Shown here: positions 1,261 to 18,085 of the stretch, one piece after another | Position numbering within the stretch: the first letter of the stretch is position 1 | Layout of the letters: each line of letters starts with the position of its first letter | From: a virus | DNA length: 22,264 nt | Direction: 5' to 3' (one strand) | Virus record (IMG/VR): IMGVR_UViG_3300009159_000359 | Coordinates: 1-22,264 of that record | Program-made: the position numbers and the translations under genes | Notes under the pieces: model-generated | Database searches by the model: none | Told to the model about the DNA's origin: nothing | What the model saw: only the letters and a program-made list of their open reading frames with translations

Positions 1261-1908
1261 GTGGAGACAAAATTGAGCTTCGTCTGCCCGTTACCGCCGA
1301 TCAAAGTTTACGTCAGGGCTGAGTACCTGTACGACCACCAGAAGGGCCACGGAGGCTTGGTCGAGGGCGTATGGTGCTGCGTCAAGTCGGTCAGGGGCGA
1401 GGCGTTCCGGTTTGAGACCTATCTACCTGAATTTGCAGCACTTTATGACAAGTTGCCCATTTCAGCGTTTGTGTGGAAGGCGTGTGAAAAACCGCTAGAG
1501 CTAGACATTTTGCAGATCTGGGACGCGCTGACGTACCACGTTGAGGTGATCGACAAACCGTTGCTGAAAGGGCTGAGGTGTGAGTTCTACGGCAAGGACG
1601 GAAACCGCTACGCTGGGGAGTACATGTTCACGCTCGATGGTGCTAATCCTGATCCACGGGTTCCAGACTTTGGGTTCTCTGAAACGCCCGACGAGCACAA
1701 GAGCTACAACCTCTTAAAATTGGACAATGGTCAATTTGCGCTCCAGCCTAACAACCGAATCCAACTGTTCGACAATGCCTTGGCACACCGAGATCTCAAG
1801 ACCCCAGACTTTAGGGTCTGTACCCGTAAATACAGCGTGGAAGATAAGGCCAAGTGGAGGCTAGGAAGCACTACAACCGTGGGCTACGACGATGCCAAAG
1901 ATCTATAA
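1261..1908 (+). CDS. Conserved-looking phage protein of unknown function (215 aa)
   Basis: This is the first sizeable rightward gene and lies directly before the packaging genes. The frame opens at 1222 with no ATG near its beginning. GTG at 1261 has no visible ribosome binding site, whereas TTG at 1273 has GGAG six nt upstream, so translation may really begin at 1273 (a protein starting at Ser-Phe-Val). The sequence looks like a soluble mixed beta protein, with a distinctive N-terminal stretch LPPIKVYVRAEYLYDH, a WDALTYHVEV strand and many aromatic residues. There is no signal peptide or membrane segment. From memory, similar proteins occur next to terminase genes in uncultured environmental phages, but I cannot name a family or function. 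Confidence 0.75.
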   Translation: METKLSFVCPLPPIKVYVRAEYLYDHQKGHGGLVEGVWCCVKSVRGEAFRFETYLPEFAALYDKLPISAFVWKACEKPLELDILQIWDALTYHVEVIDKPLLKGLRCEFYGKDGNRYAGEYMFTLDGANPDPRVPDFGFSETPDEHKSYNLLKLDNGQFALQPNNRIQLFDNALAHRDLKTPDFRVCTRKYSVEDKAKWRLGSTTTVGYDDAKDL

Positions 1909-2278: not shown

Positions 2279-2953
2279 ATGGCAAGCAGCACTACCACAA
2301 AGGCTAGGGCAGAGAAGGCCGCAGAGAAAGCCGCCGCAGCACTAGCATCCAACACCGTCGCACTCAAAAACCACCTCGCCCACAGGGCAATCGCTGGCCT
2401 CCCAAGACCCGAAGAGCGCCTCTTCGACCGTGAGTTAGTGAGCGCTCACATCTGTACCGAGATCAGGTCAGGACGGTCACTGAACGACATCTGCAAAAAC
2501 GACGTTGGAATGCCTACCATTCAGACCTACAAGTCTTGGATTCAGGCGGATCCAGACGGAGTGGGCACTCACTACGCACTGGCTCGGCAGCACGGTTATT
2601 CCCACATGGCAGACGATATTCTGGTGCTCGCAGACAAGACGCACGAGTGGGTCACGGTGCACGCGCTGAACGTCAACGGTGAGCCGGCGTACGACTCGGA
2701 CGGCAACCCGATACTAAAACAAGAATTGATGAGCCTGAACTCAGACGTCGTGGCCCACAAGAGGCTGCAGGTCGACACGCGTAAGTGGCTATTGAGCAAG
2801 GTCCTGCCGAAGATCTACGGAGACAAGATCGTCCAAGAGCACATTGGCGCTAACGGCGGACCGATCGCCTTGGCCGCGGTAGACATGAAGAACCTGACGG
2901 ACGAAGAGCTGGAGAGCATGAACCTGATGCTGACGAAGGCTGGGGCTGGTTGA
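2279..2953 (+). CDS. terS: Terminase small subunit
   Basis: TerS binds phage DNA at the packaging site, oligomerises as a ring and delivers the DNA to TerL. The 224-residue protein has a basic Ala/Lys-rich N-terminus, then a helix-turn-helix-like stretch (SLNDICKNDVGMPTIQTYKSW) of the kind found in Sf6 gp1-like small terminases. A helical oligomerisation region follows (YALARQHGYSHMADDILVLAD), then the C-terminal WLLSKVLPKIYGDKI motif typical of that family. I chose ATG 2279 because AGGA lies 5 nt upstream. The in-frame GTG at 2186 has no such site and overlaps a hairpin. The stop overlaps the TTG start of TerL. Assignment rests on recalled family motifs and the adjacent TerL. Confidence 0.82.
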   Translation: MASSTTTKARAEKAAEKAAAALASNTVALKNHLAHRAIAGLPRPEERLFDRELVSAHICTEIRSGRSLNDICKNDVGMPTIQTYKSWIQADPDGVGTHYALARQHGYSHMADDILVLADKTHEWVTVHALNVNGEPAYDSDGNPILKQELMSLNSDVVAHKRLQVDTRKWLLSKVLPKIYGDKIVQEHIGANGGPIALAAVDMKNLTDEELESMNLMLTKAGAG

Positions 2954-4512
2954 GCACAGCTGCGGCGGTGCACGGGCTGGTAAAGCGCGAGATAGAGCGC
3001 AGGAAGGCCTCCGCGTCGCTGTACGAGTTCGTGAAGCAAAGCTGGCATGTGGTAGAGCCCGGCATACCGTTCATCAAGAGCTGGCACATTGAACAAATTT
3101 GTGAGCATTTAGAAGCGATTACGTCTGGCGACATACGTAAGTTGCTGATCAATATTCCCCCCAGACACAGTAAGTCCACCATCGTCTCGGTTATGTGGCC
3201 TATCTGGGAGTGGTTAACCGACCCGTCACAGAAGTTCTTGTGTGCGAGTTACTCCGGCAATCTGAGCATCAGGGACAACCTGAAGGCTAGGCGCCTGATC
3301 CAGTCCCCTTGGTACCAAGACCGGTGGGGGCACATGTTTGAGCTGGCGGGTGACCAGAACGCCAAGGCAAGGTTCGAGAACTCTGCGACAGGGTACCGGC
3401 TGGCCACGTCGGTCGGTGGTACTGCAACCGGTGAGGGTGGCTCGAGATTGATCTTGGACGACCCGCACGGGGCTCAGGACGCACAGTCTGACACGATGCG
3501 TGAGTCTGCACTGGAATGGTTCGACATGGTGTGGAGCACGCGGCTCAACAACCCGAAGAAGGACGCGATGGTCACGGTCATGCAACGACTGCACGAGCGC
3601 GACATCAGCGGCCATATCTTGGAAGACATTGGCGGCTGGGAGCACATCTGTATTCCGGCGGAATGGGACGGCAAGCGGCGGAAGACCGTACTCGGACCCT
3701 ACGACCCTAGGACGGTGAAGGGCGAACTGATCTGCCCTGAGAGGTTCGGGGAGGCGGAGATCACCCAGCTCAAGCAGCTCTTGGGCGCGTACGGCACGGC
3801 TGGCCAGCTGCAGCAGGACCCTACCCCGAGCGAGGGCGGCATACTCAAGACGTCTTTCTTTGCCATGTGGCCGCACGGTTCAGCGCTGCCTACATTTGAA
3901 TACATCTTGCAATCTTACGACTGCGCATTTACAGAGAAGACCACTGGCGATCCCACTGCGTGTACTGTGTGGGCAATGTTTACCCATAAGGGTCAGCGTA
4001 ACGCGATGCTGATCGACGCCTGGGACGAGCACCTAAGCTACCCAGATCTGCGTACTAGGGCCATCAAAGAATGGACCACAGAGTACGGCGGCATGACCAA
4101 AGACTCGCCCTTCTCGCGTGCACGCCGTCCTGACAGGGTACTGGTCGAAGCTAAGGCCAGCGGTCAGTCTCTGCTGCAAGACCTGCGGCTGGCCAAGGTC
4201 CCTGCGGTCGGGTACAACCCTGGCAATGCCGACAAGGTCTCTCGTGCCCATCAGACGGCGCCAACGCTAGAGCTCGGACTGATCTGGATACCTGAGTCGA
4301 AGAAGAACCCCGGTCAGCACGTAAGCTGGGCCGCAAGCTTTCTCAAGCAGGTCGGCAAGTTCCCCGTCGCAGAGCACGACGACTACGTGGACACGTTCAC
4401 GCAGGCGATCATCTACCTGAAGAACGACGGGTGGTTCGAGCTACCGAAAGCCAAGGACATTGACTATCCAAAAATTGACGACAAGCCACGCATAAACCCC
4501 TATGCCGCGTGA
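2950..4512 (+). CDS. terL: Terminase large subunit (packaging ATPase and nuclease)
   Basis: TerL is the ATP-driven motor that pumps DNA into the prohead and cuts it. The 520-residue length is normal. The N-terminal ATPase carries a variant Walker A (NIPPRHSKST, Lys75) and a Walker B strand ending in acidic residues (RLILDDPHG, Asp170-Asp171). A coupling motif is near 208-216 (VTVMQRLHE). The C-terminal RNase H-like nuclease shows spaced acids Asp324 (QSYDCAFTE), Glu400 (VLVEAKASG) and Asp477/478/481 (HDDYVDTF). The start is a TTG overlapping the terS stop (TTGA), implying translational coupling. A GGGG sits 4 nt upstream. No ATG alternative lies near the N-terminus. All key motifs appear intact. 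Confidence 0.95.
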   Translation: MSTAAAVHGLVKREIERRKASASLYEFVKQSWHVVEPGIPFIKSWHIEQICEHLEAITSGDIRKLLINIPPRHSKSTIVSVMWPIWEWLTDPSQKFLCASYSGNLSIRDNLKARRLIQSPWYQDRWGHMFELAGDQNAKARFENSATGYRLATSVGGTATGEGGSRLILDDPHGAQDAQSDTMRESALEWFDMVWSTRLNNPKKDAMVTVMQRLHERDISGHILEDIGGWEHICIPAEWDGKRRKTVLGPYDPRTVKGELICPERFGEAEITQLKQLLGAYGTAGQLQQDPTPSEGGILKTSFFAMWPHGSALPTFEYILQSYDCAFTEKTTGDPTACTVWAMFTHKGQRNAMLIDAWDEHLSYPDLRTRAIKEWTTEYGGMTKDSPFSRARRPDRVLVEAKASGQSLLQDLRLAKVPAVGYNPGNADKVSRAHQTAPTLELGLIWIPESKKNPGQHVSWAASFLKQVGKFPVAEHDDYVDTFTQAIIYLKNDGWFELPKAKDIDYPKIDDKPRINPYAA

Positions 4513-4553: not shown

Positions 4554-4563
4554 ATGCCGGCAT
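4554..4563. repeat. Perfect 10-bp palindrome over the start of the giant gene
   Basis: ATGCCGGCAT is a perfect palindrome whose right end includes the first two bases of the start codon at 4562. It could be a protein-binding site, or simply a chance result of two ATG triplets around GCCGGC. Confidence 0.3.
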
Positions 4564-7500
4564 GCCTAATAAACCAGTGGACAAAGACACGCTGCCGCTC
4601 AATCAGCCTCGTCGCACGCCTAGCCATCCGACGAAGTCTCACGTTGTGAAGACCAAGGTCGATGGTAAAGAGAAGATCATCCGGTTCGGTGAACAAGGCG
4701 CCAGCACTGCGGGCAAGCCCAAGGCTGGAGAGTCTGACAAGATGAAGGCCAAGCGTGCCTCGTTCAAGTCACGCCATGCAAAGAACATTGCCAAGGGACC
4801 AAGCAGCGCCGCCTACTGGGCCAACAAGGTCAAGTGGGCTGAGGGCGGCACAGTCGAATCAACAAGCGGGCTGCAAGACCTGCTGGACAAGTACGCTGAA
4901 GGCGCCGTCAAGTCTACGCGCACGGTAACCGACGCATTAGCGAACCTTACCCCGATGGGCGACATGTCCCGTGAAGCTGCACGCGCAGCAACCCTAGTCT
5001 ACCCTAAAGAAACCGAACTTGGCGGCGAAGCTGACGCGTTGCGGCACATGCTGTTCCAGTCTGAGCTGTCGGACAAGTACGGCGAGCTGCCCGCGTACAT
5101 GGTCGGTCTGGCGAACGAGTATCTCAGGGGCGGACTACAATCCCCAGCAGAAAGACGGATGGACCTCGATAACGATATGTTAGGCAGGGCGTTCGGTCGG
5201 ACGGTGTCAGACCCTGACGAGCGCATGCGCATGATGATGGACCTTATCGACATGGGCGGCGCGACCACGTTAGAAGACAGCGAGCTGGGCTACGCACGCG
5301 GCGGGCCGGTTCCTGGCTTTGGCAGGGGAGGCAACTGGGCCGAGATTGCCGCGAAGGCACGCCTAGGCGTTAAGACAGCGGCTGAAGAGCTGCTTGATCT
5401 CTCACAAGAAGCCAAGTCGGCAAGAGCAGTAGAGCAAGGGTTCACGGACAGGTTGTGGCACTCAAGCAATGAAGTATTTGCTGGATCGCCACAAGCTAAA
5501 GAAGCCATTGAATATAATATTCCCATTCGACGTGAATTTAAAAACGTTTTTGGGGGCACCTATTTTTCACCAGAAAGCGATTTAACAGGAGAAATTTTTG
5601 GTAAAGGAACTTTTGGTGGACCAGCAGAATATTTGATAAAAAAGGGAAATAACTTTGACGCTCATCATCCGAGTATGGGCGAAGAACAGAAAAAACAATT
5701 AAAAGATATACTTAATTCAGTGTTAGACACTGATGATATTGAAGGAGCAGCCGCAAGACTTGATATACCGTTAGAAGATGTTGATAGCTTTGATCTTTTT
5801 ACAGATGGTGAATTTTATCAAGCATTTGGTAGAGATGCACAAGACAAAGTCATGAATGCTTTTTCTAAGAGAGGCTATGATTCAGTAACATTCCCTGACA
5901 ATTTGGCTTCTGGCGACATGACACGTTCAACTGTTGTTTTTAATCCATCTCACATTCGATCGCCCGATGCTGACTTCGACCCCTCCAAGCTAGACTCTTC
6001 GGATCTAGGACACGCCAAGGGTGGCTCCGTGCCTGGCTTTGGCAGGGGAGGTATCAATCCAAAAGAGCTTGCAGCAAAGGTATCCGGTACGCTCAAAGAG
6101 GCACAAGACCTGCTTGGCATAACGCCTGAAGCACAAGCGGCTTGGCGTGCGTCTCGCACAGGGAGCAAACGGACCCGCGTACCAGAAGTGAAAAGCGCAG
6201 CAAACAGCTTGCGCTTAGGCGACATATCGACCGACGAGTATCAGGCAATAGTACGGCAATTCATGCCGATCAAACCGTTGGGGGCGGTTCAAAACGTGCC
6301 TACATTCGAGAACATTGCGCTATCGCTTAGCAAAGACCCAAATAAATCAGCGGGCATTGTTGGTGTTAATGTCGACATCCCAGACGGAACCAGAATCGCC
6401 TCAAGGCTTGACATACCAGCATACCAGAACTATGACACATGGGTGGTCTCCCTTCACGACGGGACCAAGAAAGGCGGCAACGCTGTGGGCTACGGGCAGA
6501 CGGCGGTATTGAACAATGTAAATTTTGAGTCTAGCGCGAAGGGTGCGCTAAACATAGCCTCTGAAGCTCTGAAGCCTAGCGGTGAGAAATACGATAAGAG
6601 CACGATTGCTAGAATGTATGGCGATTGGGCAAACCATTCAGCCGAGGACGTGCAGAGGGCGGCGACAAGCATACTGGAAGACGGCGATCCAGATTGGGTC
6701 GAGATCGGCATGAACCCAGACCGTCACAGCTATTTCTATCGCAAGTCAGACGGGGCACCGGTTGGCTCTGCAGAGCAGGTAATACAAATAGGACCGCTAG
6801 TGTTAGCAAAGAAAGTCAAAACGATTGCGATAGATGACCCTGCGCACTTAGTAGAGACGCCCAATGGTCCTCGTCATTACGCCCGTGGCGGCATTAATCC
6901 GAAAGCTTTGGCCAAAGAATTAAAAGGCGGTGAGGTCATGGGCTACGCTGAGGGAGGCCTAGCAGAGCTCGCGGACAAGTACAGCAAGGACTACTACCAG
7001 TTTCCTTTTGACGACCACGACGAGCACTACCTGAAGTTTGCAGGCGGCGGAGATCTAGCCAAAATCTTGAGGGAGTGGCTCAAGGACCACCCTGAAAAAG
7101 GACTGGCAGATTTGAAGACTCGTCAACCCGCTATAGAACACTACCAAGGCATACTAGCAGACCCAACGCTTGCAAACAGACGCATTGGCACAGGCACACA
7201 TGAAGCAGGTAGCCCTTTATATTATGACATGGCTCAACAAGAATTGAACGCACTCAAGCCAGACATAGCCCTTAACAATTTTGTTGATGGTGCACTCAAC
7301 AAGTACATTAAGCGCGACTACGGCACCGACTGGGATCCATTGACCACGCTTACGCCAGACGAAAGACACGTCCCCGAGGGCGTGAACAATGTTGCTCGTC
7401 AAGGCGAGCCCACTCTAAGATCAAGAAACTGGCCACCGATCAGGTTTGGCTCTGAAGCTGGCACTAAAAAGATAATAGATGGGCTGCGGTCAACGACACG

Positions 7501-10465
7501 CGATTTGATTCATTCCCCAACAGCGGGATATAGAACTACTGGACTACGCATCGACGACGTGTACAAGGCAAATCCGTGGCTCACAGGAAAACCAAGAGAC
7601 ATGGAATTGTTTTATGATTTTAATCCACACTATGGCGCATTTCCTCACTTGATAAATACGCTACGCAGAACTATTACGCCAGACTCTGGCCTGCCTAATG
7701 AGCTGCGTCTCAACCCTGAGTCATTGCAACGTATGTCCGTGCTGCAGGCGTCAAAACTTGTGGGCAAGGTCAATCAGTGGGACAAGGCACAGGCACAAGC
7801 GGCCAGTCAGAGGCTGATGTTAAACCCGTTCAAGGAGTACGACTCTGGATACAAGTGGGTCAAGCTGCCAAACGCTAGAGAGCCGGAGGGACTAAAGTCG
7901 GTTATGGACTTAGGCTGCAAGGGGGGCTGGTGCACGCAGCAAGAGGACCAAGCGAAAGGCTATAGCAATTACGCAAGAGGAGACCATCTGTATGCGCTGC
8001 TAGACCCCGAAGGAAGACCGCACGCGCAAGTTTCCACTTTTGAGGGAGACCCGCACGATTGGGAAAGAAATAAAAATATAACGTCAATGCAGCCACTCGC
8101 TAACGATTTTGACAGCCAGTATGTTTCTGACTGGATGAAAAAAGATCCAAATTACAAGAATCAGATCAAGGGCTACATGCAAGACTTTGCGGGGTCCAAT
8201 GACTGGACACATAATGGGGCTGTTGATGGCATGGACGCGATAGACATGATACCGACAAATGATTGGGAGAAATATTTTAAACTCAACCACATGAAATATG
8301 AGCCCCTACGGGGATCGTTGAACTATGATCCTGCAAATGTTGGTGGGTCAGACGCTGTGTATCTTGAGGCTGTGCGTCGGGCAAGACAAAACGCTAGCCA
8401 GAGAGAAGAAAAAATCCCCGCGTATATGACTGTTCGCCAATCCAAAAACATGATCCAACAATTTATGCCAAGGCTTGACGAACGTGAACGTATAAACGCT
8501 CAAGTTGAGCGATTGTTCCAAAAACCTCCAGTAGAGGGCTACGCCGAAGGAGGCCGTGCCATGAAAGACTTAAAAGACGAACCGGCGCCAGACATTTACG
8601 ACTCCCAGAAGCGCAGCAAGACCGGTATTGATGTTCTGGACAACATGCTAGACCCGTTCTATGCGATGAGGGCTGGGATAGACGCTCAGGTATTGCCAGA
8701 AGAGGTCCAATGGACAGACGACGAGGGTAACATGCACAGCTACACTGCGCCCGGCATAGCCAACAGCGCTCTGGGTTTAGCAAGCTACGCCCAACTCTTT
8801 GGCGGTCCCGAGTATCCAATGGCAGACGCGGGGTCAGACGCGTACGACACAGGCTTGCAGCGTGCTCTTGATCACTATGCTCTTCCCGTACGCAACGACA
8901 TGGGGTTTGTGAACAAGACTGGTCTGACTCTAGGCGAAATGCTTGGACAGATACCGCTGGTCCCGCTGTCCGCGGCTAACAAGGTCCGCCAAGGCGCACA
9001 AGTTTTAGGGGGCGCAATGCCTTTCATTAAAAAAACGCTTATGGCTATCCCTGAGTATCTGGGTCCAACCATTGAGCCGACAGCGTTAAATTATGCGATT
9101 GGCACAGCGGGCGGAATGGCGTTCCCGCCTGCGATGGAAGGATTGATGAGAATGTACGAAAAGTACAGCCCTGAGCTTGAGTATGAAGTGCCTGACACTG
9201 ACATGCGCGGATTGCTTGACGACATAGGCAATCCAATAGACCGTGAGTCAGACAAAAGGGTGGCCCAGTGGGTCGCTGAGCAGCGCGGTCCTTCAGACGA
9301 GCGGGCTAGGATAGCGGACAACGTCAGGCGCAGCATGATGACGCCAGGCTTTGGCAAAGGCGGTTTCAACCCTAAAGAGCTTGCAGAGAAGCTAGCGAAA
9401 GAAGCGGCTGAAGATGTGCCTAAAAACCTATATACCGCTGCCGACCGCGCAAATGCGGGACGCAAAGCAGCTCAGCTAATTAGTTCGCAAGAGCCGGTCA
9501 AAGCATCAGAGGCTTTGGGGCAACTGATGGAGCGTGGGTTCAAAAACACTACGACCACGGTAGCTGACCGCACCCGTGTGGGCGGTGGCAACATAGGCGG
9601 CGCAAATTTCCCAGCTATTAGCGAAGTAGATCCAGGTTATGAGGATATAGTCTGGGGGGTGATGGATAAAGGTACAGGAAGTCGCTTGACTAACCTGACC
9701 ACGCCAGAGACAGCATGGACAACAATGCTCGGCTCTGGAACCCAGCTTAAAACCAACCCAATTGTATTTGACAAGCTCATGCGTGGCTTCTTGGGTTCCA
9801 TGAAGCAGGGCAACTTGTCTGACGACTTAGCCTCAAAAATAAACCACAACCTTGCGTTAGTATTTGGAGAAGGTGCAGACATCAGAGATCCGATGATTTG
9901 GCAGCTAGCAGATACGTTTGATAAGCGTTCGGTATTGGCCAACCTAATGATGGGTAAAGGCATGCCGAAAAGCAAAGGAGGCATTCCACTTGGGGGGGAA
10001 CTACGCGGCGGTGCTATCTTCAACCCAAGTGAAATCTTGATCAGAGAGACAGAACCTACGTTGATGCATCCTTTGTATGGTGGCAACGTGCCAACTTATG
10101 CTGCTGGTCCACGTACGTTCAGTTTGGACGGGACGGCCGAGTACCGCCCAGACCTACATCCAGGCTTTCCAACATTGTTACACGGGGAAGACTTGGGCTT
10201 TAATATGATCCCCACGCCGACTGAGGTTTACCTACCAGATTGGCACCGTGCTTTCAAAGCGGCCAACCCAGACCGCAAGGGTCCGGGCTACTACGACCTT
10301 GCGCTGGGCGTAGAAGGTGAGGGATTACCAAGCCAAGCCTTAACGGAAAAGTACATCCGTCATTTGATCCGCGAAGGATACAGCCACGGCGGCAACGTAG
10401 AAATGCAAGACCTGCAGGACATGTTAGACAAATATAATCAGGACACACGAGTAAATTATGGCTAA
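4562..10465 (+). CDS. Giant modular polyvalent-like protein (1967 aa)
   Basis: One uninterrupted frame fills the interval between terL and the portal; GAGA lies 9 nt before the ATG. Modules, by residue: 1-95 basic Lys-rich phage segment; about 100-240 with ADALRHMLF and MDLDNDMLGRAFG motifs resembling DUF6973-type domains; about 297-480 ADP-ribosyltransferase-like (LWHSS His300, GGTYFSP Tyr334, VVFNPSHI 458-465); about 500-770 an unnamed conserved-looking module (TWVVSLHDGT); about 830-1320 including a PcfJ-like stretch (MDLGCKGGWCTQ 1115-1125, LYALLDPEGRPHAQV); about 1335-1595 an Ala/Gly-rich region; 1600-1940 another unnamed module. Gly-rich boundaries (YARGG, GYAEGG, PGFGRGG) separate them. 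A short LxDxLDKY-like motif recurs at about 104-111, 802-807 and 1951-1958. Polyvalent proteins are known to be injected with DNA; that role here is inference. Confidence 0.85.
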   Translation: MPNKPVDKDTLPLNQPRRTPSHPTKSHVVKTKVDGKEKIIRFGEQGASTAGKPKAGESDKMKAKRASFKSRHAKNIAKGPSSAAYWANKVKWAEGGTVESTSGLQDLLDKYAEGAVKSTRTVTDALANLTPMGDMSREAARAATLVYPKETELGGEADALRHMLFQSELSDKYGELPAYMVGLANEYLRGGLQSPAERRMDLDNDMLGRAFGRTVSDPDERMRMMMDLIDMGGATTLEDSELGYARGGPVPGFGRGGNWAEIAAKARLGVKTAAEELLDLSQEAKSARAVEQGFTDRLWHSSNEVFAGSPQAKEAIEYNIPIRREFKNVFGGTYFSPESDLTGEIFGKGTFGGPAEYLIKKGNNFDAHHPSMGEEQKKQLKDILNSVLDTDDIEGAAARLDIPLEDVDSFDLFTDGEFYQAFGRDAQDKVMNAFSKRGYDSVTFPDNLASGDMTRSTVVFNPSHIRSPDADFDPSKLDSSDLGHAKGGSVPGFGRGGINPKELAAKVSGTLKEAQDLLGITPEAQAAWRASRTGSKRTRVPEVKSAANSLRLGDISTDEYQAIVRQFMPIKPLGAVQNVPTFENIALSLSKDPNKSAGIVGVNVDIPDGTRIASRLDIPAYQNYDTWVVSLHDGTKKGGNAVGYGQTAVLNNVNFESSAKGALNIASEALKPSGEKYDKSTIARMYGDWANHSAEDVQRAATSILEDGDPDWVEIGMNPDRHSYFYRKSDGAPVGSAEQVIQIGPLVLAKKVKTIAIDDPAHLVETPNGPRHYARGGINPKALAKELKGGEVMGYAEGGLAELADKYSKDYYQFPFDDHDEHYLKFAGGGDLAKILREWLKDHPEKGLADLKTRQPAIEHYQGILADPTLANRRIGTGTHEAGSPLYYDMAQQELNALKPDIALNNFVDGALNKYIKRDYGTDWDPLTTLTPDERHVPEGVNNVARQGEPTLRSRNWPPIRFGSEAGTKKIIDGLRSTTRDLIHSPTAGYRTTGLRIDDVYKANPWLTGKPRDMELFYDFNPHYGAFPHLINTLRRTITPDSGLPNELRLNPESLQRMSVLQASKLVGKVNQWDKAQAQAASQRLMLNPFKEYDSGYKWVKLPNAREPEGLKSVMDLGCKGGWCTQQEDQAKGYSNYARGDHLYALLDPEGRPHAQVSTFEGDPHDWERNKNITSMQPLANDFDSQYVSDWMKKDPNYKNQIKGYMQDFAGSNDWTHNGAVDGMDAIDMIPTNDWEKYFKLNHMKYEPLRGSLNYDPANVGGSDAVYLEAVRRARQNASQREEKIPAYMTVRQSKNMIQQFMPRLDERERINAQVERLFQKPPVEGYAEGGRAMKDLKDEPAPDIYDSQKRSKTGIDVLDNMLDPFYAMRAGIDAQVLPEEVQWTDDEGNMHSYTAPGIANSALGLASYAQLFGGPEYPMADAGSDAYDTGLQRALDHYALPVRNDMGFVNKTGLTLGEMLGQIPLVPLSAANKVRQGAQVLGGAMPFIKKTLMAIPEYLGPTIEPTALNYAIGTAGGMAFPPAMEGLMRMYEKYSPELEYEVPDTDMRGLLDDIGNPIDRESDKRVAQWVAEQRGPSDERARIADNVRRSMMTPGFGKGGFNPKELAEKLAKEAAEDVPKNLYTAADRANAGRKAAQLISSQEPVKASEALGQLMERGFKNTTTTVADRTRVGGGNIGGANFPAISEVDPGYEDIVWGVMDKGTGSRLTNLTTPETAWTTMLGSGTQLKTNPIVFDKLMRGFLGSMKQGNLSDDLASKINHNLALVFGEGADIRDPMIWQLADTFDKRSVLANLMMGKGMPKSKGGIPLGGELRGGAIFNPSEILIRETEPTLMHPLYGGNVPTYAAGPRTFSLDGTAEYRPDLHPGFPTLLHGEDLGFNMIPTPTEVYLPDWHRAFKAANPDRKGPGYYDLALGVEGEGLPSQALTEKYIRHLIREGYSHGGNVEMQDLQDMLDKYNQDTRVNYG
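5312..5331 (+). repeat. 20-bp direct repeat, left copy, flanking the ART-like module
   Basis: This 20-mer, encoding most of PGFGRGG, is identical to the copy at 6032-6051. The two copies are 720 bp (240 codons) apart, so recombination between them would keep the frame. A diverged third copy lies at 9344-9363. Confidence 0.9.
5450..6001 (+). other. AT-rich cassette encoding an ADP-ribosyltransferase-like domain
   Basis: This part of the giant gene differs in composition from its surroundings. My hand count for 5521-5940 is 155 G+C in 420 bases (about 37%), against 37 of 60 at 5041-5100 and 44 of 60 at 5281-5340. Codons favour A/T in third positions. The encoded segment has the His...Tyr...VVFNP arrangement of phage ART-like modules. 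It lies between the two 20-bp direct repeats and looks like an acquired cassette. Confidence 0.6.
6032..6051 (+). repeat. 20-bp direct repeat, right copy
   Basis: Identical to 5312-5331. The similarity to the diverged copy at 9344 continues downstream into codons for the shared motif NPKELA. Confidence 0.9.
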
Positions 10466-13031
10466 GTCTAAAGACGAAGAATTCTTGAAGAAAGAAGAGT
10501 TGGACTCTGAGGGTGAGACTGTAGAGGTCTCTGAAGACGAGGCTGGCGTTACCGACACCGAAGACGGTGGTGCTATGGTTGCGCTCGAAGAAAAGGAAAA
10601 CAAGCACGGCGAGCATAGCGTGCTAGAGCACTTCGCCAATATCGTTGACGAGGTTGACCAGTCAATGCTCAAAGAGTCTGTCACCGACTTATTGGAAAAG
10701 ATCGAGCGTGACAAGGAAGCGCGTGAGAAGCGCGACAAACAGTACGAGGAAGGCTTGCGACGTACAGGCTTGGGCGACGATGCCCCAGGCGGTGCCCAGT
10801 TCACAGGCGCCAACAAGGTCGTCCACCCGATGCTTGTCGAGGCGTGCGTAGACTTTTCTGCGCGGTTTATGAAAGAGATATTTCCGCCTAATGGTCCGGT
10901 CAAGAGCAAAGTAAACGGCGAGCAAGAGAAGAGCAAGCTAGAGAAGGCGCAACGAAAAGCCGACTTTATGAACTGGCAGATCACCGAGCAGATGACCGAG
11001 TTCAGGGGCGAGCTTGAGCAGTTGAGCACGCAGCTGCCGTTGGGTGGTGGTCAGTACATGAAGCTGATGTGGGACGCACAGCGCCGTAGGCCCAACGCTG
11101 AGTTTGTGCCCATTGACGATATTTATTTGCCGTTCGCTGCGACGAACTTCTACACCGCAGAACGTAAGACGCACGTCCAGTACATCACCAAGATGGAGTA
11201 CAACAAGCGCATCAAGACTGGCATGTACATCGACGTTGACCTTGGCGCTCCAGACGACCCAGAGTACAGCAAGGCGTCACAAGCCAACGACAAGATTGAG
11301 GGACGCAAAGACCTGAGCTACAACGAGGACGGTCTGCGTACCATGTTCGAGATATATACCTACTTTGATTTTGGTGATGGGGTAGAGCCGTACATCATCA
11401 CGATAGACAAGTCGACCAGTAAAGCGTTGGGCCTGTACCGTAACTGGGAGCCAGAGGACACGCAGAAGAAAGAGCTGGACTGGGTCGTAGAGTTCCCGTT
11501 TGTGCCTTGGCGTGGCGCCTACCCGATCGGTCTTACCCACATGATCGGTGGTTTGAGCGGTGCGGCTACTGGCGCGTTACGTGCCCTGCTTGACTCTGCC
11601 CACATCCAAAACATCCCTACCATGCTCAAGCTGAAAGGCGGGCCTGGCGGACAAACCCTGAACCTACAGCCGACCGAGATTGCGGAGATAGAGGGCGGTG
11701 CTTTGGTCGACGACATACGCAAGATAGCGATGCCGATACCGTTCAACCAGCCAAGCCCTGTCTTGTTTCAATTGCTTGGATTTTTAGTTGAGGCAGGCAA
11801 GGGCGTGGTGCAGACCTCGTTTGAGAGGCTGAGCGATCAGAGTGTTAACCAACCGGTAGGGACAACGCTGGCCCTCATTGAGCAGGGCATGGTCGTGTTC
11901 AGCAGTATTCATTCGCGCCTGCACAGTTCGATGGCGAAATGTTTGAAGGTAATCCACCGCATCAACTCTGCCTACCTTACTGAGGAAGACATAGAGGCGT
12001 GCGATGCTGGTCTTGAGATTGAGCCGTCAGACTTTGACGGTCCTATGGACGTCATCCCAGTCAGCGATCCTTCTATATTCAGCGAGACGCAGCGCTTTGC
12101 ACAGATCCAAGCGATCATTCAAAGGGCAGCGGTCGCGCCGCAATTGTACGACGCAAGGAAGGTCGAGGAGATGTTCCTGCGCGTAATGAAGATACCTGGC
12201 GACGAAGTATTGGTGTCGCTGCCTGGGACTGACGACATGGACCCGGTCAGCGAGAACGTCGCGGCGGCTATGGGGCGTCCTGTGTTTGTGTTGCCGGCGC
12301 AAGACCACATGGCACACATGATGGTACACATACCGTTCCTGCAGTCTCCCTTGTTTGGGTCAAACCCTGCAATAGCAAAGACCTACCTTTACCCGATGGC
12401 CACACACTTGCGTGATCACCTGTTGAACTATTATTTGGTAGAGGCCCACACCGCGATCAGCATGGCACAGAGCCAGAGTCTCATAGAGAAAGAGGCCCAA
12501 GCGCAGGTGAATGTTGTGCTACAGGTACAGCAGTTCATTGAAAGCCAGCTAGGGTCGTTTGGTCAGCAGTTAGCGCAGATTGATCAGTCAGCCCAGCAGT
12601 TCGCTCCACAGGCGCCCGTGCAGCAAGACAGCAGCCTACAGATTGCGCAGATGAACTCACAATTGCAGGGCCAAGCGTTGCAACAAAGAGCGGCACAAGA
12701 TCAGGCACGTACACAGATGGATCAGGCTAAGATGCAGCAGCAGTCGCAGATAGAGCAGACCAAGATCCAGCAGAAGGCACAGTTTGATCAGGCACGGCTA
12801 CAGTTAGACCAAGCTAAAATGCAGTTAGATCAGGCAGCCATTAGCATGGACGCGCAGATCGCGCAGGCACGACTGAGCGCAGACGCCCAGCGTACTATGG
12901 CAGAGCTAGAGTCACGCGAGCGCATGAACTCTGCCGACAACGACACCGCCAAGCTACTTGCAGCGGCAGAGATCGCGTCGGGAGAGAAAGTAAGTTTTAG
13001 CACAGGCACAGGCATTAACCCCAACCCATGA
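10458..13031 (+). CDS. Portal protein, P22-like
   Basis: The portal is the dodecameric ring at one capsid vertex through which TerL pumps DNA and to which the tail binds. The 857-residue protein has an acidic N-terminal extension (1-60), a conserved-looking core (FTGANKVVHPMLVEACVDFSARFMKEIF; WVVEFPFVPWRGAYPIGLTH; SDQSVNQPVGTTLALIEQGM), then a long Gln-rich helical C-terminus from about residue 675 to 815. That tail shows units of 7 and 11 residues (QMDQAKM, QQKAQFDQARL, QLDQAKM), as expected of a coiled coil and comparable to the P22 portal barrel. It overlaps the giant gene by 8 nt and has no strong ribosome binding site of its own, so coupling is likely. It is longer than the 725-residue P22 portal. 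Confidence 0.9.
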   Translation: MAKSKDEEFLKKEELDSEGETVEVSEDEAGVTDTEDGGAMVALEEKENKHGEHSVLEHFANIVDEVDQSMLKESVTDLLEKIERDKEAREKRDKQYEEGLRRTGLGDDAPGGAQFTGANKVVHPMLVEACVDFSARFMKEIFPPNGPVKSKVNGEQEKSKLEKAQRKADFMNWQITEQMTEFRGELEQLSTQLPLGGGQYMKLMWDAQRRRPNAEFVPIDDIYLPFAATNFYTAERKTHVQYITKMEYNKRIKTGMYIDVDLGAPDDPEYSKASQANDKIEGRKDLSYNEDGLRTMFEIYTYFDFGDGVEPYIITIDKSTSKALGLYRNWEPEDTQKKELDWVVEFPFVPWRGAYPIGLTHMIGGLSGAATGALRALLDSAHIQNIPTMLKLKGGPGGQTLNLQPTEIAEIEGGALVDDIRKIAMPIPFNQPSPVLFQLLGFLVEAGKGVVQTSFERLSDQSVNQPVGTTLALIEQGMVVFSSIHSRLHSSMAKCLKVIHRINSAYLTEEDIEACDAGLEIEPSDFDGPMDVIPVSDPSIFSETQRFAQIQAIIQRAAVAPQLYDARKVEEMFLRVMKIPGDEVLVSLPGTDDMDPVSENVAAAMGRPVFVLPAQDHMAHMMVHIPFLQSPLFGSNPAIAKTYLYPMATHLRDHLLNYYLVEAHTAISMAQSQSLIEKEAQAQVNVVLQVQQFIESQLGSFGQQLAQIDQSAQQFAPQAPVQQDSSLQIAQMNSQLQGQALQQRAAQDQARTQMDQAKMQQQSQIEQTKIQQKAQFDQARLQLDQAKMQLDQAAISMDAQIAQARLSADAQRTMAELESRERMNSADNDTAKLLAAAEIASGEKVSFSTGTGINPNP

Positions 13032-13179: not shown

Positions 13180-13373
13180 ACTTAGAGACCAAGCTACTGA
13201 ATAAGCTCAAGGCTGAGCAGCAGAGTTTTGCTGTAGAGGCTTTGACGCGACCCCAGACACGCGATACGTTTGAGTACGGGTATCGTGTTGGAATGTTTGC
13301 GGGCTACGAAGCCGCAATAAACGTACTATTAAAACTCATAGACGAGGAACAACATGGCGACAATGACATATGA
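13176..13373 (+). CDS. Small conserved-looking phage protein (65 aa)
   Basis: The GTG start overlaps the preceding stop by 4 nt, suggesting translational coupling, and the 3' end overlaps the co-chaperonin gene by 20 nt. The protein is mostly helical in character: a charged N-terminal helix (ETKLLNKLKAEQQSFAVEAL), an aromatic turn (FEYGYRVGMFAGYEA) and a second helix (INVLLKLIDEE). Small two-helix proteins in this position, between portal and head genes, occur in many environmental phages. I know no assigned role. Confidence 0.7.
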   Translation: MNLETKLLNKLKAEQQSFAVEALTRPQTRDTFEYGYRVGMFAGYEAAINVLLKLIDEEQHGDNDI

Positions 13374-13767
13374 GGACGCACTTGCAGAGGCTTTTCCCGC
13401 TGTAGAAGCAGGGATCCAGCCTTTCGGTAGCCGCGTTCTGATCCAGATAAGGACAGCTAAAAAGAAATCCACAGGGGGTATTATCTTAGACCTTGGCACG
13501 CAAGACACCGAGAAGTGGAACACACAGGTCGGTAAGGTTGTGCAGGTCGGACCATTAGCCTTTAAGAACCGCAATGACATGACCACATGGCCGGAAGGCG
13601 AGTGGTGTGCTGCGGGTCAATTTGTTCGGGTACCTAAATACGGCGGAGACCGTTGGGAATCTAGAATTCCTGACACAGACTCTACCGCAATGTTCGTAAT
13701 CTTTAACGACCTTGATATTATTGGGCGAGTCCTTGGCGACCCATTAGCTATCAAGGCATTCATCTGA
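13354..13767 (+). CDS. GroES-like co-chaperonin
   Basis: GroES-type proteins cap the GroEL folding chamber, and some phages encode their own version to fold capsid protein. The 137-residue protein follows the GroES plan: an N-terminal strand GIQPFGSRVLIQI (about 19-31), the mobile-loop position KKKSTGGIIL (37-46), VGKVVQVGPLAF (about 60-71) matching the GEVLAVG strand of GroES, FVRVPKYGGDRWE (about 91-103) for the roof region, and the terminal DLDIIGRVLG matching ESDILA. It is longer than bacterial GroES (about 97 residues) because of N-terminal, central and C-terminal additions. GAGGA lies before the ATG. Its place just before the scaffold and capsid genes fits a role in capsid folding with host GroEL. 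Confidence 0.75.
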   Translation: MATMTYEDALAEAFPAVEAGIQPFGSRVLIQIRTAKKKSTGGIILDLGTQDTEKWNTQVGKVVQVGPLAFKNRNDMTTWPEGEWCAAGQFVRVPKYGGDRWESRIPDTDSTAMFVIFNDLDIIGRVLGDPLAIKAFI

Positions 13768-15960: not shown

Positions 15961-16875
15961 ATGGCTACTCCAATGAGAAGTACGGACTTCAGATCCATAG
16001 TTGAGCCAATCCTCAACGAAGTATTTGATGGCGTTTATAACCAACGTGCAGACGAGTGGAAACAAGTCTTCACAGAACAGAAAGGCATCCCACGCAACTA
16101 TCATGAAGAACCCGTTCTTTATGGTTTTGGTGCGGCGCCTGAGTTGCCCGACGGTATGGCTGTAAGCTACCAGTCTGGCGGCGTGTTGTTCCTACAACGT
16201 TACCTCTACAAAGTATACGGTCTGGCGTTCAGCTTGACCAAAGTGCTTGTAGAAGACGGCGATCATATCCGTATCGGTCAGACCTACTCCAAACACTTGG
16301 CGCAGTCTTTGATCGAAACGAAAGAAACGTTGTCGGCTAACGTATTGAACCGTGCGTTTAACAGTGCGTATGTTGGTGGTGACGGCGTATCGCTGATCAG
16401 CACTGCGCATCCGATTGTTAGCGGCACGTTCAGCAATCAGTTGAGCACAGCTGCCAACTTGTCACAAACATCACTTGAGCAGATCCTCATCCAGATCCGC
16501 AACGCTGTTGACAACAACGGCAAGCGTATCCGTTTGACGCCTACTCAGATTGTGGCAGGCCCAAGCAACGTGTTCCAAGCTGAAGTATTGCTGAAGTCTG
16601 TTCTGCGTACCGGCACTGCCGATAACGACATCAACCCTGTTAAGAGCATGGGTCTGTTGGCTAAAGGTCAGGCTAATCTGTCACGTATCACCTCGTCCAC
16701 CGCTTGGTGGGTACAGACTGATGCGCCAGAAGGCATGAAGCTGTTAATGCGTCGTGGTCTTGAGAAGTCTATGGAAGGTGATTTTGAAACCGACTCCATG
16801 CGCTACAAGGCAACCGAGCGTTACACTGTGGGCTGGACTGACCCGCGTGGTCTTTTCGGAACCGCTGGTGTTTAA
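15961..16875 (+). CDS. Major capsid protein
   Basis: This 304-residue protein would form the icosahedral shell. It follows the scaffold and decoration-like genes, has a long purine-rich GGGGGG ribosome binding site and is followed directly by a strong terminator, as expected for the most highly expressed head gene. The N-terminal helix (SIVEPILNEVFDGVYNQRAD), the central long helix (HIRIGQTYSKHLAQSLIETK), the segment IRNAVDNNGKRIRLTPTQIV and the C-terminal loop region (SVLRTGTADNDINPVKSMGL) match the general layout of HK97-fold coats from environmental phages. There is no clear N-terminal protease-processed delta domain, consistent with use of a separate scaffold. Confidence 0.85.
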   Translation: MATPMRSTDFRSIVEPILNEVFDGVYNQRADEWKQVFTEQKGIPRNYHEEPVLYGFGAAPELPDGMAVSYQSGGVLFLQRYLYKVYGLAFSLTKVLVEDGDHIRIGQTYSKHLAQSLIETKETLSANVLNRAFNSAYVGGDGVSLISTAHPIVSGTFSNQLSTAANLSQTSLEQILIQIRNAVDNNGKRIRLTPTQIVAGPSNVFQAEVLLKSVLRTGTADNDINPVKSMGLLAKGQANLSRITSSTAWWVQTDAPEGMKLLMRRGLEKSMEGDFETDSMRYKATERYTVGWTDPRGLFGTAGV

Positions 16876-17911: not shown

Positions 17912-18085
17912 ATGAGCAAGACATATAAAATTGTTAAAGAGTTTTCGTTTCCTACGTCGCAAGGGTTTACTGGCTCTGCTGGTAAACAGTCCGTCAGTGC
18001 TTACGCTGTGGGTGGGAAGGTAGCCACCCCTTGCGCTTGTGGCGGTTATACCATGCGATCGAAGGGCGGAAAGTCTAAGAAGTAG
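17912..18085 (+). CDS. Small Gly-rich protein with CAC motif (57 aa)
   Basis: An ATG at 17912, 6 nt after the previous stop, opens a 57-codon frame ending in TAG at 18083-18085. No clear Shine-Dalgarno site is seen, so it may depend on coupling. The sequence has a mixed N-terminus (KTYKIVKEFSFPTSQG), the motif AYAVGGKVATPCACGG and a basic tail (RSKGGKSKK). The YAVGGK motif recalls the YAxGG boundaries of the giant protein. The close Cys pair could bind a metal. The role is unknown; reading-frame length, operon spacing and protein-like content support it. Confidence 0.55.
   Translation: MSKTYKIVKEFSFPTSQGFTGSAGKQSVSAYAVGGKVATPCACGGYTMRSKGGKSKK

What the first reader, a model, noticed from the sequence alone, without database searches (positions are those of the whole stretch)
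4562..10465. Giant modular protein between TerL and portal, possible injected effector string
A single 1967-codon frame occupies over a quarter of the window in a position where other P22-like phages have little or nothing. It contains at least five distinct-looking modules: a DUF6973-like, an ART-like and a PcfJ-like one, and unnamed ones. They are joined by Gly-rich boundaries. Polyvalent proteins of phages and conjugative elements are known to carry such mixed modules and to enter the cell with DNA. A giant version built into the packaging cluster could be the phage's anti-defence or takeover cargo.
Basis: partly seen in the sequence, partly recalled or inferred. Interest (0 to 1): 0.78.

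Follow-up and report, generated by a model that had tools for sequence, protein, structure and literature searches.

The report
Swappable cargo protein beside portal gene
A large group of aquatic phages keeps a giant protein gene between two DNA-packaging genes and builds it from interchangeable modules joined by a recurring short peptide motif; some relatives carry known anti-defence enzymes, so it may be a weapon carried into the host with the phage DNA, though that has not been shown.

Summary
In detail: window 4562-10465 is one 1967-codon frame between TerL and a portal gene. It has seven or eight modules. DUF6973 passes Pfam's cut-off. The ART-like and PcfJ-like modules are supported mainly through relatives. 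M4 is a confidently modelled globular domain without a PDB fold match; M7 is conserved but unidentified. The 'Gly-rich boundaries' are a specific peptide, [YF]-A-x-G-G-x-V: 330 copies in 185 module-bearing proteins against 14 expected, nearly all outside modules, with free synonymous variation. In a large phage group the TerL-portal interval is a cargo slot, empty in some members and filled by 0.6-2.2 kaa mosaics in most sampled ones. Modules exchange independently of the phage backbone: M7 is 76% identical where portal and TerL are about 30%. Slot relatives carry ART-PolyVal, PcfJ, ParB, Zeta-toxin and GDSL domains, and one an AcrIF11 anti-CRISPR ART domain above NCBI's cut-off. In 80 of 92 cases the cargo gene overlaps or lies within 20 nt of the portal gene. 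Best reading: a polyvalent protein made with the head, probably packaged and delivered with DNA as anti-defence or takeover cargo. Packaging, injection and catalysis are inferred. It is a new variant of a known kind.

The parts
4562..10465 (+). 1967-aa modular cargo protein (P0001)
   Evidence: open frame; TerL-portal position; dN/dS 0.49 against L003
4583..4837 (+). M1: basic N-terminal module, phrog_7595; a stand-alone small protein in many marine phages
   Evidence: PHROG E 1.9e-34; tblastn hits in SIO1, P12053L, KBS-S-2A, CRP-1
4835..4849 (+). joint motif WAEGG
   Evidence: motif scan
4943..5218 (+). M2: DUF6973 domain
   Evidence: Pfam 28.8 bits, cut-off 27
5291..5332 (+). double joint motif YARGGPVPGFGRGG
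   Evidence: motif scan; DNA repeats D1/D2
5450..5971 (+). M3: ADP-ribosyltransferase-like module (polyvalent ART type), H300, Y334, D440
   Evidence: profile of relatives without the window, i-E 0.0045, c-E 1.5e-6; alignment A11 with invariant H, G, D; residue numbers
6011..6052 (+). double joint motif HAKGGSVPGFGRGG
   Evidence: motif scan
6092..6877 (+). M4: globular module of unknown function, remote similarity to mycobacteriophage L5 gp82
   Evidence: AF2 pLDDT about 95; no PDB match; BFVD matches to PcfJ, ART-PolyVal, lysozyme and Zeta-toxin phage proteins and to stand-alone actinophage proteins; Pfam L5_gp82 E 0.02, sub-threshold
6878..6961 (+). joint motifs YARGG and YAEGG
   Evidence: motif scan; an extra ART-like module lies exactly here in L003
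7037..7051 (+). joint motif FAGGG
   Evidence: motif scan
7052..7399 (+). M5a: module preceding the PcfJ-like module
   Evidence: profile hits in relatives
7400..8536 (+). M5: PcfJ-like module (variant GWCTQ in place of HCVG)
   Evidence: homology to L009, which hits Pfam PcfJ
8540..8554 (+). joint motif YAEGG
   Evidence: motif scan
8555..9349 (+). M6: module shared with L009 and L188
9350..9364 (+). joint motif FGKGG
   Evidence: motif scan
9404..10375 (+). M7: highly conserved module of unknown function
   Evidence: about 60 IMG/VR loci; AF2 pLDDT 68 and no PDB match
10379..10462 (+). C-terminal joint motif and putative helix GYSHGGNVEMQDLQDMLDKY
   Evidence: motif scan; alignment with L008 and L009 C-termini
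2950..4512 (+). terminase large subunit (left border of the slot)
   Evidence: phrog_38 E 4e-89
10458..13031 (+). portal protein (right border; start overlaps the cargo stop by 8 nt)
   Evidence: phrog_1216 E 4e-14; homology to head-to-tail connecting proteins

Best explanation
The gene encodes a polyvalent cargo protein kept in a dedicated cargo slot between TerL and portal. The slot's content is assembled by horizontal exchange of modules: a basic N-terminal module, DUF6973, ART, an L5-gp82-like domain, PcfJ-like and others. The joints carry a conserved peptide, [YF]AxGGxV. Coupled to portal synthesis, the protein is most likely made during head assembly, packaged, and delivered with the DNA, where the modules blunt host defence or start host takeover. 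Shown here: the architecture, the slot, module exchange, the motif, and anti-defence-type domains in slot relatives. Inferred: virion packaging, injection, catalysis, and that the motif or M1 is the packaging or docking signal.
For: Slot: in loci chosen only by the portal the interval is empty or nearly so in RW, CRP-902, Pag-Yong1, QDWS535 and L024, and holds 600-2207 aa of cargo in about 17 others. 80 of 92 cargo genes end within 20 nt of, or overlap, the portal gene. Mosaic: orders M7-M4, M5-M7, M7-M5, M1-M5, M1-M5-M7-M3 and M5-M6 among 65 distinct multi-module ORFs; L003 has an extra ART-like module exactly at a joint; dS between window and L003 ranges from 0.013 (M3) to 0.30 (M4) in one gene; M7 is 76% identical where portal and TerL are 30-32%, M5 is 26% where portal is 74%. 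Motif: 330 against 14 expected in 185 slot ORFs, 37 against 19 in 868 other ORFs, 305 of 330 outside modules, 192 distinct DNA 15-mers. Domains in slot relatives: ART-PolyVal 10/32, PcfJ 10/32, GDSL, Zeta toxin, ParB, GNAT+M15+ART and InPase, AcrIF11 family at 78.4 bits (cut-off 50) in L257. M4's structural neighbours are phage proteins named for PcfJ, ART-PolyVal, lysozyme and Zeta-toxin domains. Literature: up to 35% of polyvalent proteins are phage-encoded and likely to be packaged (PMC5512222); AcrIF11 ADP-ribosylates Cas8f N250 (PMC13131331).
Against: There is no virion proteomics for any member. The slot is dispensable in some phages. Late-operon position alone does not prove packaging. 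The window's own ART and PcfJ modules are below the Pfam thresholds and no known anti-defence domain was found in P0001 itself. M7 and M4 have no function assigned. A chain of 1967 residues leaving through a short-tail portal must be unfolded or cleaved, and no protease was identified in the window.
Confidence: 0.6

Rival explanations
1. Ejection or internal virion protein (like T7 gp14-16 or P22 gp7/16/20): the giant protein mainly forms or assists the genome-delivery conduit, and the enzyme-like modules are secondary.
For: Podoviruses usually carry large internal proteins (general knowledge); the gene sits in the head operon and is tightly coupled to portal; M7 is strongly conserved across divergent phages.
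Against: Content is not conserved: relatives lack the gene altogether, modules are swapped and reordered, there is no strongly hydrophobic segment (maximum 19-residue mean hydropathy 1.07), and the recognised domains are largely enzymatic.
Confidence: 0.15
2. Non-virion late protein: made late as an accessory or assembly protein that acts in the infected cell (for example superinfection exclusion or late host modification) and never packaged.
For: No direct evidence of packaging; M1 occurs as a stand-alone gene outside the core structural genes in CRP-1 and P12053L.
Against: Nearly constant position and tight coupling to portal across very different cargoes; domain repertoire matches polyvalent proteins predicted to be packaged (PMC5512222).
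Confidence: 0.2
3. Polyprotein: the chain is cut at the [YF]AxGG joints into separate effector proteins before or after packaging. This could also be combined with the best explanation.
For: The motif marks module borders and C-termini; phage P1 DdrB is processed before packaging (PMC5512222).
Against: No maturation protease identified among the window's head genes; no peptidase domain found in P0001. The motif also occurs close to C-termini, where cleavage would release little.
Confidence: 0.1
4. The joint motif is an inert flexible linker or a DNA recombination site inherited with the modules, rather than a functional peptide. This concerns the motif only and is compatible with the cargo reading.
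For: Similar linkers inside the gene form DNA repeats of 74-81% identity and modules change at joints.
Against: Strong residue preferences beyond Gly (Y/F about 15-fold, V at +6 12.7-fold) with 192 different coding 15-mers point to selection on the peptide.
Confidence: 0.25

Closest known systems
Polyvalent proteins of phages and conjugative elements (Iyer et al. 2017, PMC5512222)
   Same: Many disparate domains in one chain (ART-like here; ART-PolyVal, PcfJ, ParB, GNAT, InPase, Zeta in slot relatives), encoded beside virion genes of portal-terminase phages.
   Different: Fixed TerL-portal cargo slot with module exchange traced between close phages, and a recurrent [YF]AxGGxV joint motif; the words 'glycine' and 'linker' do not occur in that paper's main text.
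AcrIF11 anti-CRISPR ADP-ribosyltransferase
   Same: Slot protein of relative L257 (aa 370-505) passes the NCBI equivalog cut-off.
   Different: Classic AcrIF11 is a small stand-alone protein (14.5 kDa, PMC13131331); here it is embedded in a 2042-aa head-operon protein. Not found in the window protein.
Phage P1 DarA/DdrB packaged antirestriction-locus proteins
   Same: Large multidomain proteins of a defence-related operon, reported as processed and packaged into the head (as cited in PMC5512222).
   Different: No relation found in the searches made; packaging not shown here.
MuF-domain head proteins with C-terminal effector domains
   Same: Head-gene neighbourhood with fused effectors.
   Different: No MuF domain found.

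Membership tests
Polyvalent proteins | two or more domains of disparate type in one polypeptide | tested here: met
   DUF6973, ART-like, PcfJ-like, M4, M6, M7 and M1 in one chain
Polyvalent proteins | carries domains from the polyvalent set (ART-PolyVal, ParB, InPase, GNAT ...) | tested here: inconclusive
   relatives in the same slot: yes, above cut-off; P0001's own ART module only through relatives
Polyvalent proteins | encoded among virion genes of a portal-terminase phage | tested here: met
   TerL-portal slot
Polyvalent proteins | enters the host with the DNA | not testable with these tools
   needs virion proteomics or an injection assay
ART-PolyVal (PF18760) | profile match above Pfam cut-off | tested here: not met
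   P0001: no match at E<=1; L003's extra module 20.2 bits, cut-off 31.2
Polyvalent-type ADP-ribosyltransferase | conserved H / Y / D catalytic pattern | tested here: inconclusive
   H300, Y334 and D440 present in M3; H and D invariant in A11; that D440 is the catalytic D is inferred; no confident fold model for M3
PcfJ (PF14284) | profile match above Pfam cut-off | tested here: not met
   P0001: no match; homologous L009 and L053 match
DUF6973 (PF22322) | profile match above Pfam cut-off | tested here: met
   28.8 bits, cut-off 27
AcrIF11 (NF052490) | profile match above equivalog cut-off | tested here: not met
   P0001: none at E<=0.1; relative L257 met, 78.4 bits, cut-off 50
Tape-measure or fibre protein | one continuous repetitive or elongated fold | tested here: not met
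   compact alpha/beta M4 at pLDDT about 95; mosaic histories

The most novel reading that the evidence does not exclude
[YF]AxGGxV is a cargo tag: it docks any module that carries it to the portal or procapsid, so that this phage group has a plug-in system for loading interchangeable anti-defence enzymes, including anti-CRISPR ARTs, into the head for delivery with the first DNA.
Probability: 0.3. Interest if true: 0.85.

Novelty: new variant of a known kind. Interest (0 to 1): 0.64.

Why it matters
Polyvalent proteins were predicted from scattered domain architectures. Here is a locus of fixed position in a large aquatic phage group (portal relatives in Pelagibacter, Roseobacter and Caulobacter phages) where cargo can be found by position even when its sequence is unknown, as with M4 and M7. 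A slot relative carries an AcrIF11-type domain, so 'is anti-CRISPR delivered pre-made with the DNA?' becomes testable. If the joint motif is a packaging tag, it would also give a general handle for studying how proteins are loaded into these phage heads.

Tried and rejected
Mixed-module alignments for structure prediction failed because MAFFT stacked ART and PcfJ rows onto M4, so only M4 (with M3) and M7 were modelled. M3 came out at low confidence and gives no fold evidence; M7 reached pLDDT 68 and no PDB match. Sequence searches of PDB with M4, M5 and M7 profiles found nothing meaningful. P0001 had no PADLOC or NCBIfam hits. The full-text search for four motif strings held 28 papers; the 15 listed were unrelated by title. 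The Sulfitobacter phiGT1 virion proteomics paper was looked at by keyword and concerns another podovirus lineage. The polyprotein reading is disfavoured for lack of a protease. Module shuffling as a pure DNA-site effect is disfavoured by synonymous diversity at the motif. Bias noted: loci found with module queries over-represent filled slots, so slot occupancy is quoted from portal-selected loci.
Full report
OBSERVATION. The frame 4562-10465 (+) is open for 1967 codons. PHROG matches identify the neighbours: small terminase 2186-2953, TerL 2950-4512, portal 10458-13031, GroES 13354-13767, and a capsid-type protein 15961-16875. The portal ATG lies inside the last codons of the frame (8-nt overlap). 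The same protein is in another IMG/VR contig (99.95% aa), and a 2207-aa version in L003. dN/dS between window and L003 is 0.49 for the whole protein and 0.05 for portal: a real but fast-changing gene.

MODULES. M1 (aa 8-92) is phrog_7595, a stand-alone small gene in SIO1, P12053L, KBS-S-2A, CRP-1 and others. M2 is DUF6973, just above Pfam's cut-off. M3 (297-470) is ADP-ribosyltransferase-like: a profile built from other slot proteins, without the window or L003's M3, finds it at i-E 0.0045, and it keeps the H and G-x-D that are invariant in the set. The published polyvalent ART pattern is H-Y-D (PMC5512222). M4 (511-772) has no Pfam assignment (L5 gp82 at E 0.02, below cut-off). Its AF2 model is confident (most 10-residue blocks about 90-98) and has no PDB fold match, but it matches predicted giant phage proteins named for PcfJ, LT_GEWL, ART-PolyVal, lysozyme and Zeta-toxin domains, and small stand-alone actinophage proteins. 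M5 (947-1325) is homologous to L009's PcfJ domain. M6 is shared with few relatives. M7 (1615-1938) is conserved in about 60 contigs and has no known fold or family here.

THE SLOT. In phages found only through the portal, the TerL-portal interval is empty or nearly so in Caulobacter RW (a tRNA-Val), CRP-902, Pag-Yong1, QDWS535 and L024. It holds small genes in HTVC023P and MW202675, and large proteins in DSL-LC04 (PcfJ-like, 825 aa), MW202545 (GP88-containing), HTVC027P, 023Pt_psg01 and many IMG/VR contigs. MW202675 carries its polyvalent set (GNAT+M15+ART-PolyVal; InPase) directly behind portal instead. Among 194 distinct module-bearing ORFs, 118 have this portal type downstream within four genes and 98 have TerL upstream. 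80 of 92 measurable cargo genes end within 20 nt of, or overlap, the portal gene. Contigs found by module queries are biased towards filled slots.

MODULE EXCHANGE. 65 distinct multi-module ORFs show orders such as M7-M4, M5-M7, M7-M5, M1-M5, M1-M5-M7-M3 and M5-M6. Between window and L003 the synonymous divergence per module runs from 0.013 (M3) and 0.022 (M7) to 0.28 (M1) and 0.30 (M4), and L003 has an additional ART-like module at a joint. M7 is 76% identical in phages whose portal and TerL are 30-32% identical to the window's; M4 reaches 66% where portal is 30%; M5 is only 26% where portal is 74%. The loci were gathered by module similarity and modules differ in constraint, so the exact percentages are not rates, but the lack of agreement with the backbone is plain: modules and backbone have separate histories.

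THE JOINT MOTIF. [FYWH]AxGG occurs 330 times in 185 slot ORFs (203 kaa; shuffles 14.0, maximum 27) and 37 times in 868 other ORFs (334 kaa; shuffles 18.8). Many of the latter are other slot proteins or virion-region proteins, judging from the list. 305 of 330 lie outside recognised modules. Context preferences: G at -1 (4x), Y/F at 0 (15x), E at +2 (5x), S at +5 (6x), V at +6 (12.7x). The 330 copies are encoded by 192 different 15-mers, so the peptide rather than the DNA is conserved. Copies sit between modules and near C-termini, often followed by a short putative helix. I found no description of it; the polyvalent-protein paper's main text contains neither 'glycine' nor 'linker', and the full-text search for motif strings listed unrelated papers. 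The searched library is open-access only.

FUNCTION. Slot relatives carry ART-PolyVal (10 of 32 scanned), PcfJ (10), GDSL (2), Zeta toxin (1), ParB (1) and DUF7178 (2). The strongest functional clue is in L257 (2042 aa, same slot, sharing M5a-M5-M6): an AcrIF11-family ART domain, 78.4 bits against an equivalog cut-off of 50. AcrIF11 ADP-ribosylates Cas8f N250 (PMC13131331). That does not show that the window's own ART is an anti-CRISPR; P0001 has no such hit. The most economical reading is a polyvalent cargo protein, made with the portal, probably packaged and delivered with the DNA. Packaging, injection and catalysis are inferences; the rivals are an ejection protein, an unpackaged late protein, and a polyprotein cut at the joints.

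VERDICT. New relative to the known kind are the fixed optional cargo slot, the independently exchanging modules, and the joint motif.

Noticed in passing
window 17912-18085; L012 13803-14180; L016 16005-16415; L048 18808-20157: Small basic or repetitive proteins behind the capsid gene carry the same [YF]AxGG motif (AYAVGGKV; KGYAKGGKRMMKSKGYAKGGKK; five copies in a 449-aa protein): possible partners or co-packaged proteins.
   Followed up: partly
window 1261-1908: 215-aa protein matching phrog_3704, annotated 'ferredoxin', at E 2.4e-85, upstream of the terminase genes.
   Followed up: no
L055 14238-21735 (MW202675): Relative with three polyvalent-type genes behind portal instead of before it: GNAT+M15+ART-PolyVal, an 847-aa unknown, and an InPase protein.
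   Followed up: partly
L011 3761-7681, L016 2707-6939: Slot proteins with dockerin-like 'ADLNDDG' motifs (Pfam Dockerin_1 E about 1e-4, just below cut-off).
   Followed up: no
L280 1376-2386: The genome-collection scan gave only one M7 relative, in a MAG contig labelled Armatimonadetes: probably a phage contig binned with it; the module looks phage-specific.
   Followed up: no
L188 1-6853: 2284-aa partial slot protein with three separate ART-like modules plus M2-, PcfJ-like, M6 and M7 modules, the richest architecture seen.
   Followed up: no
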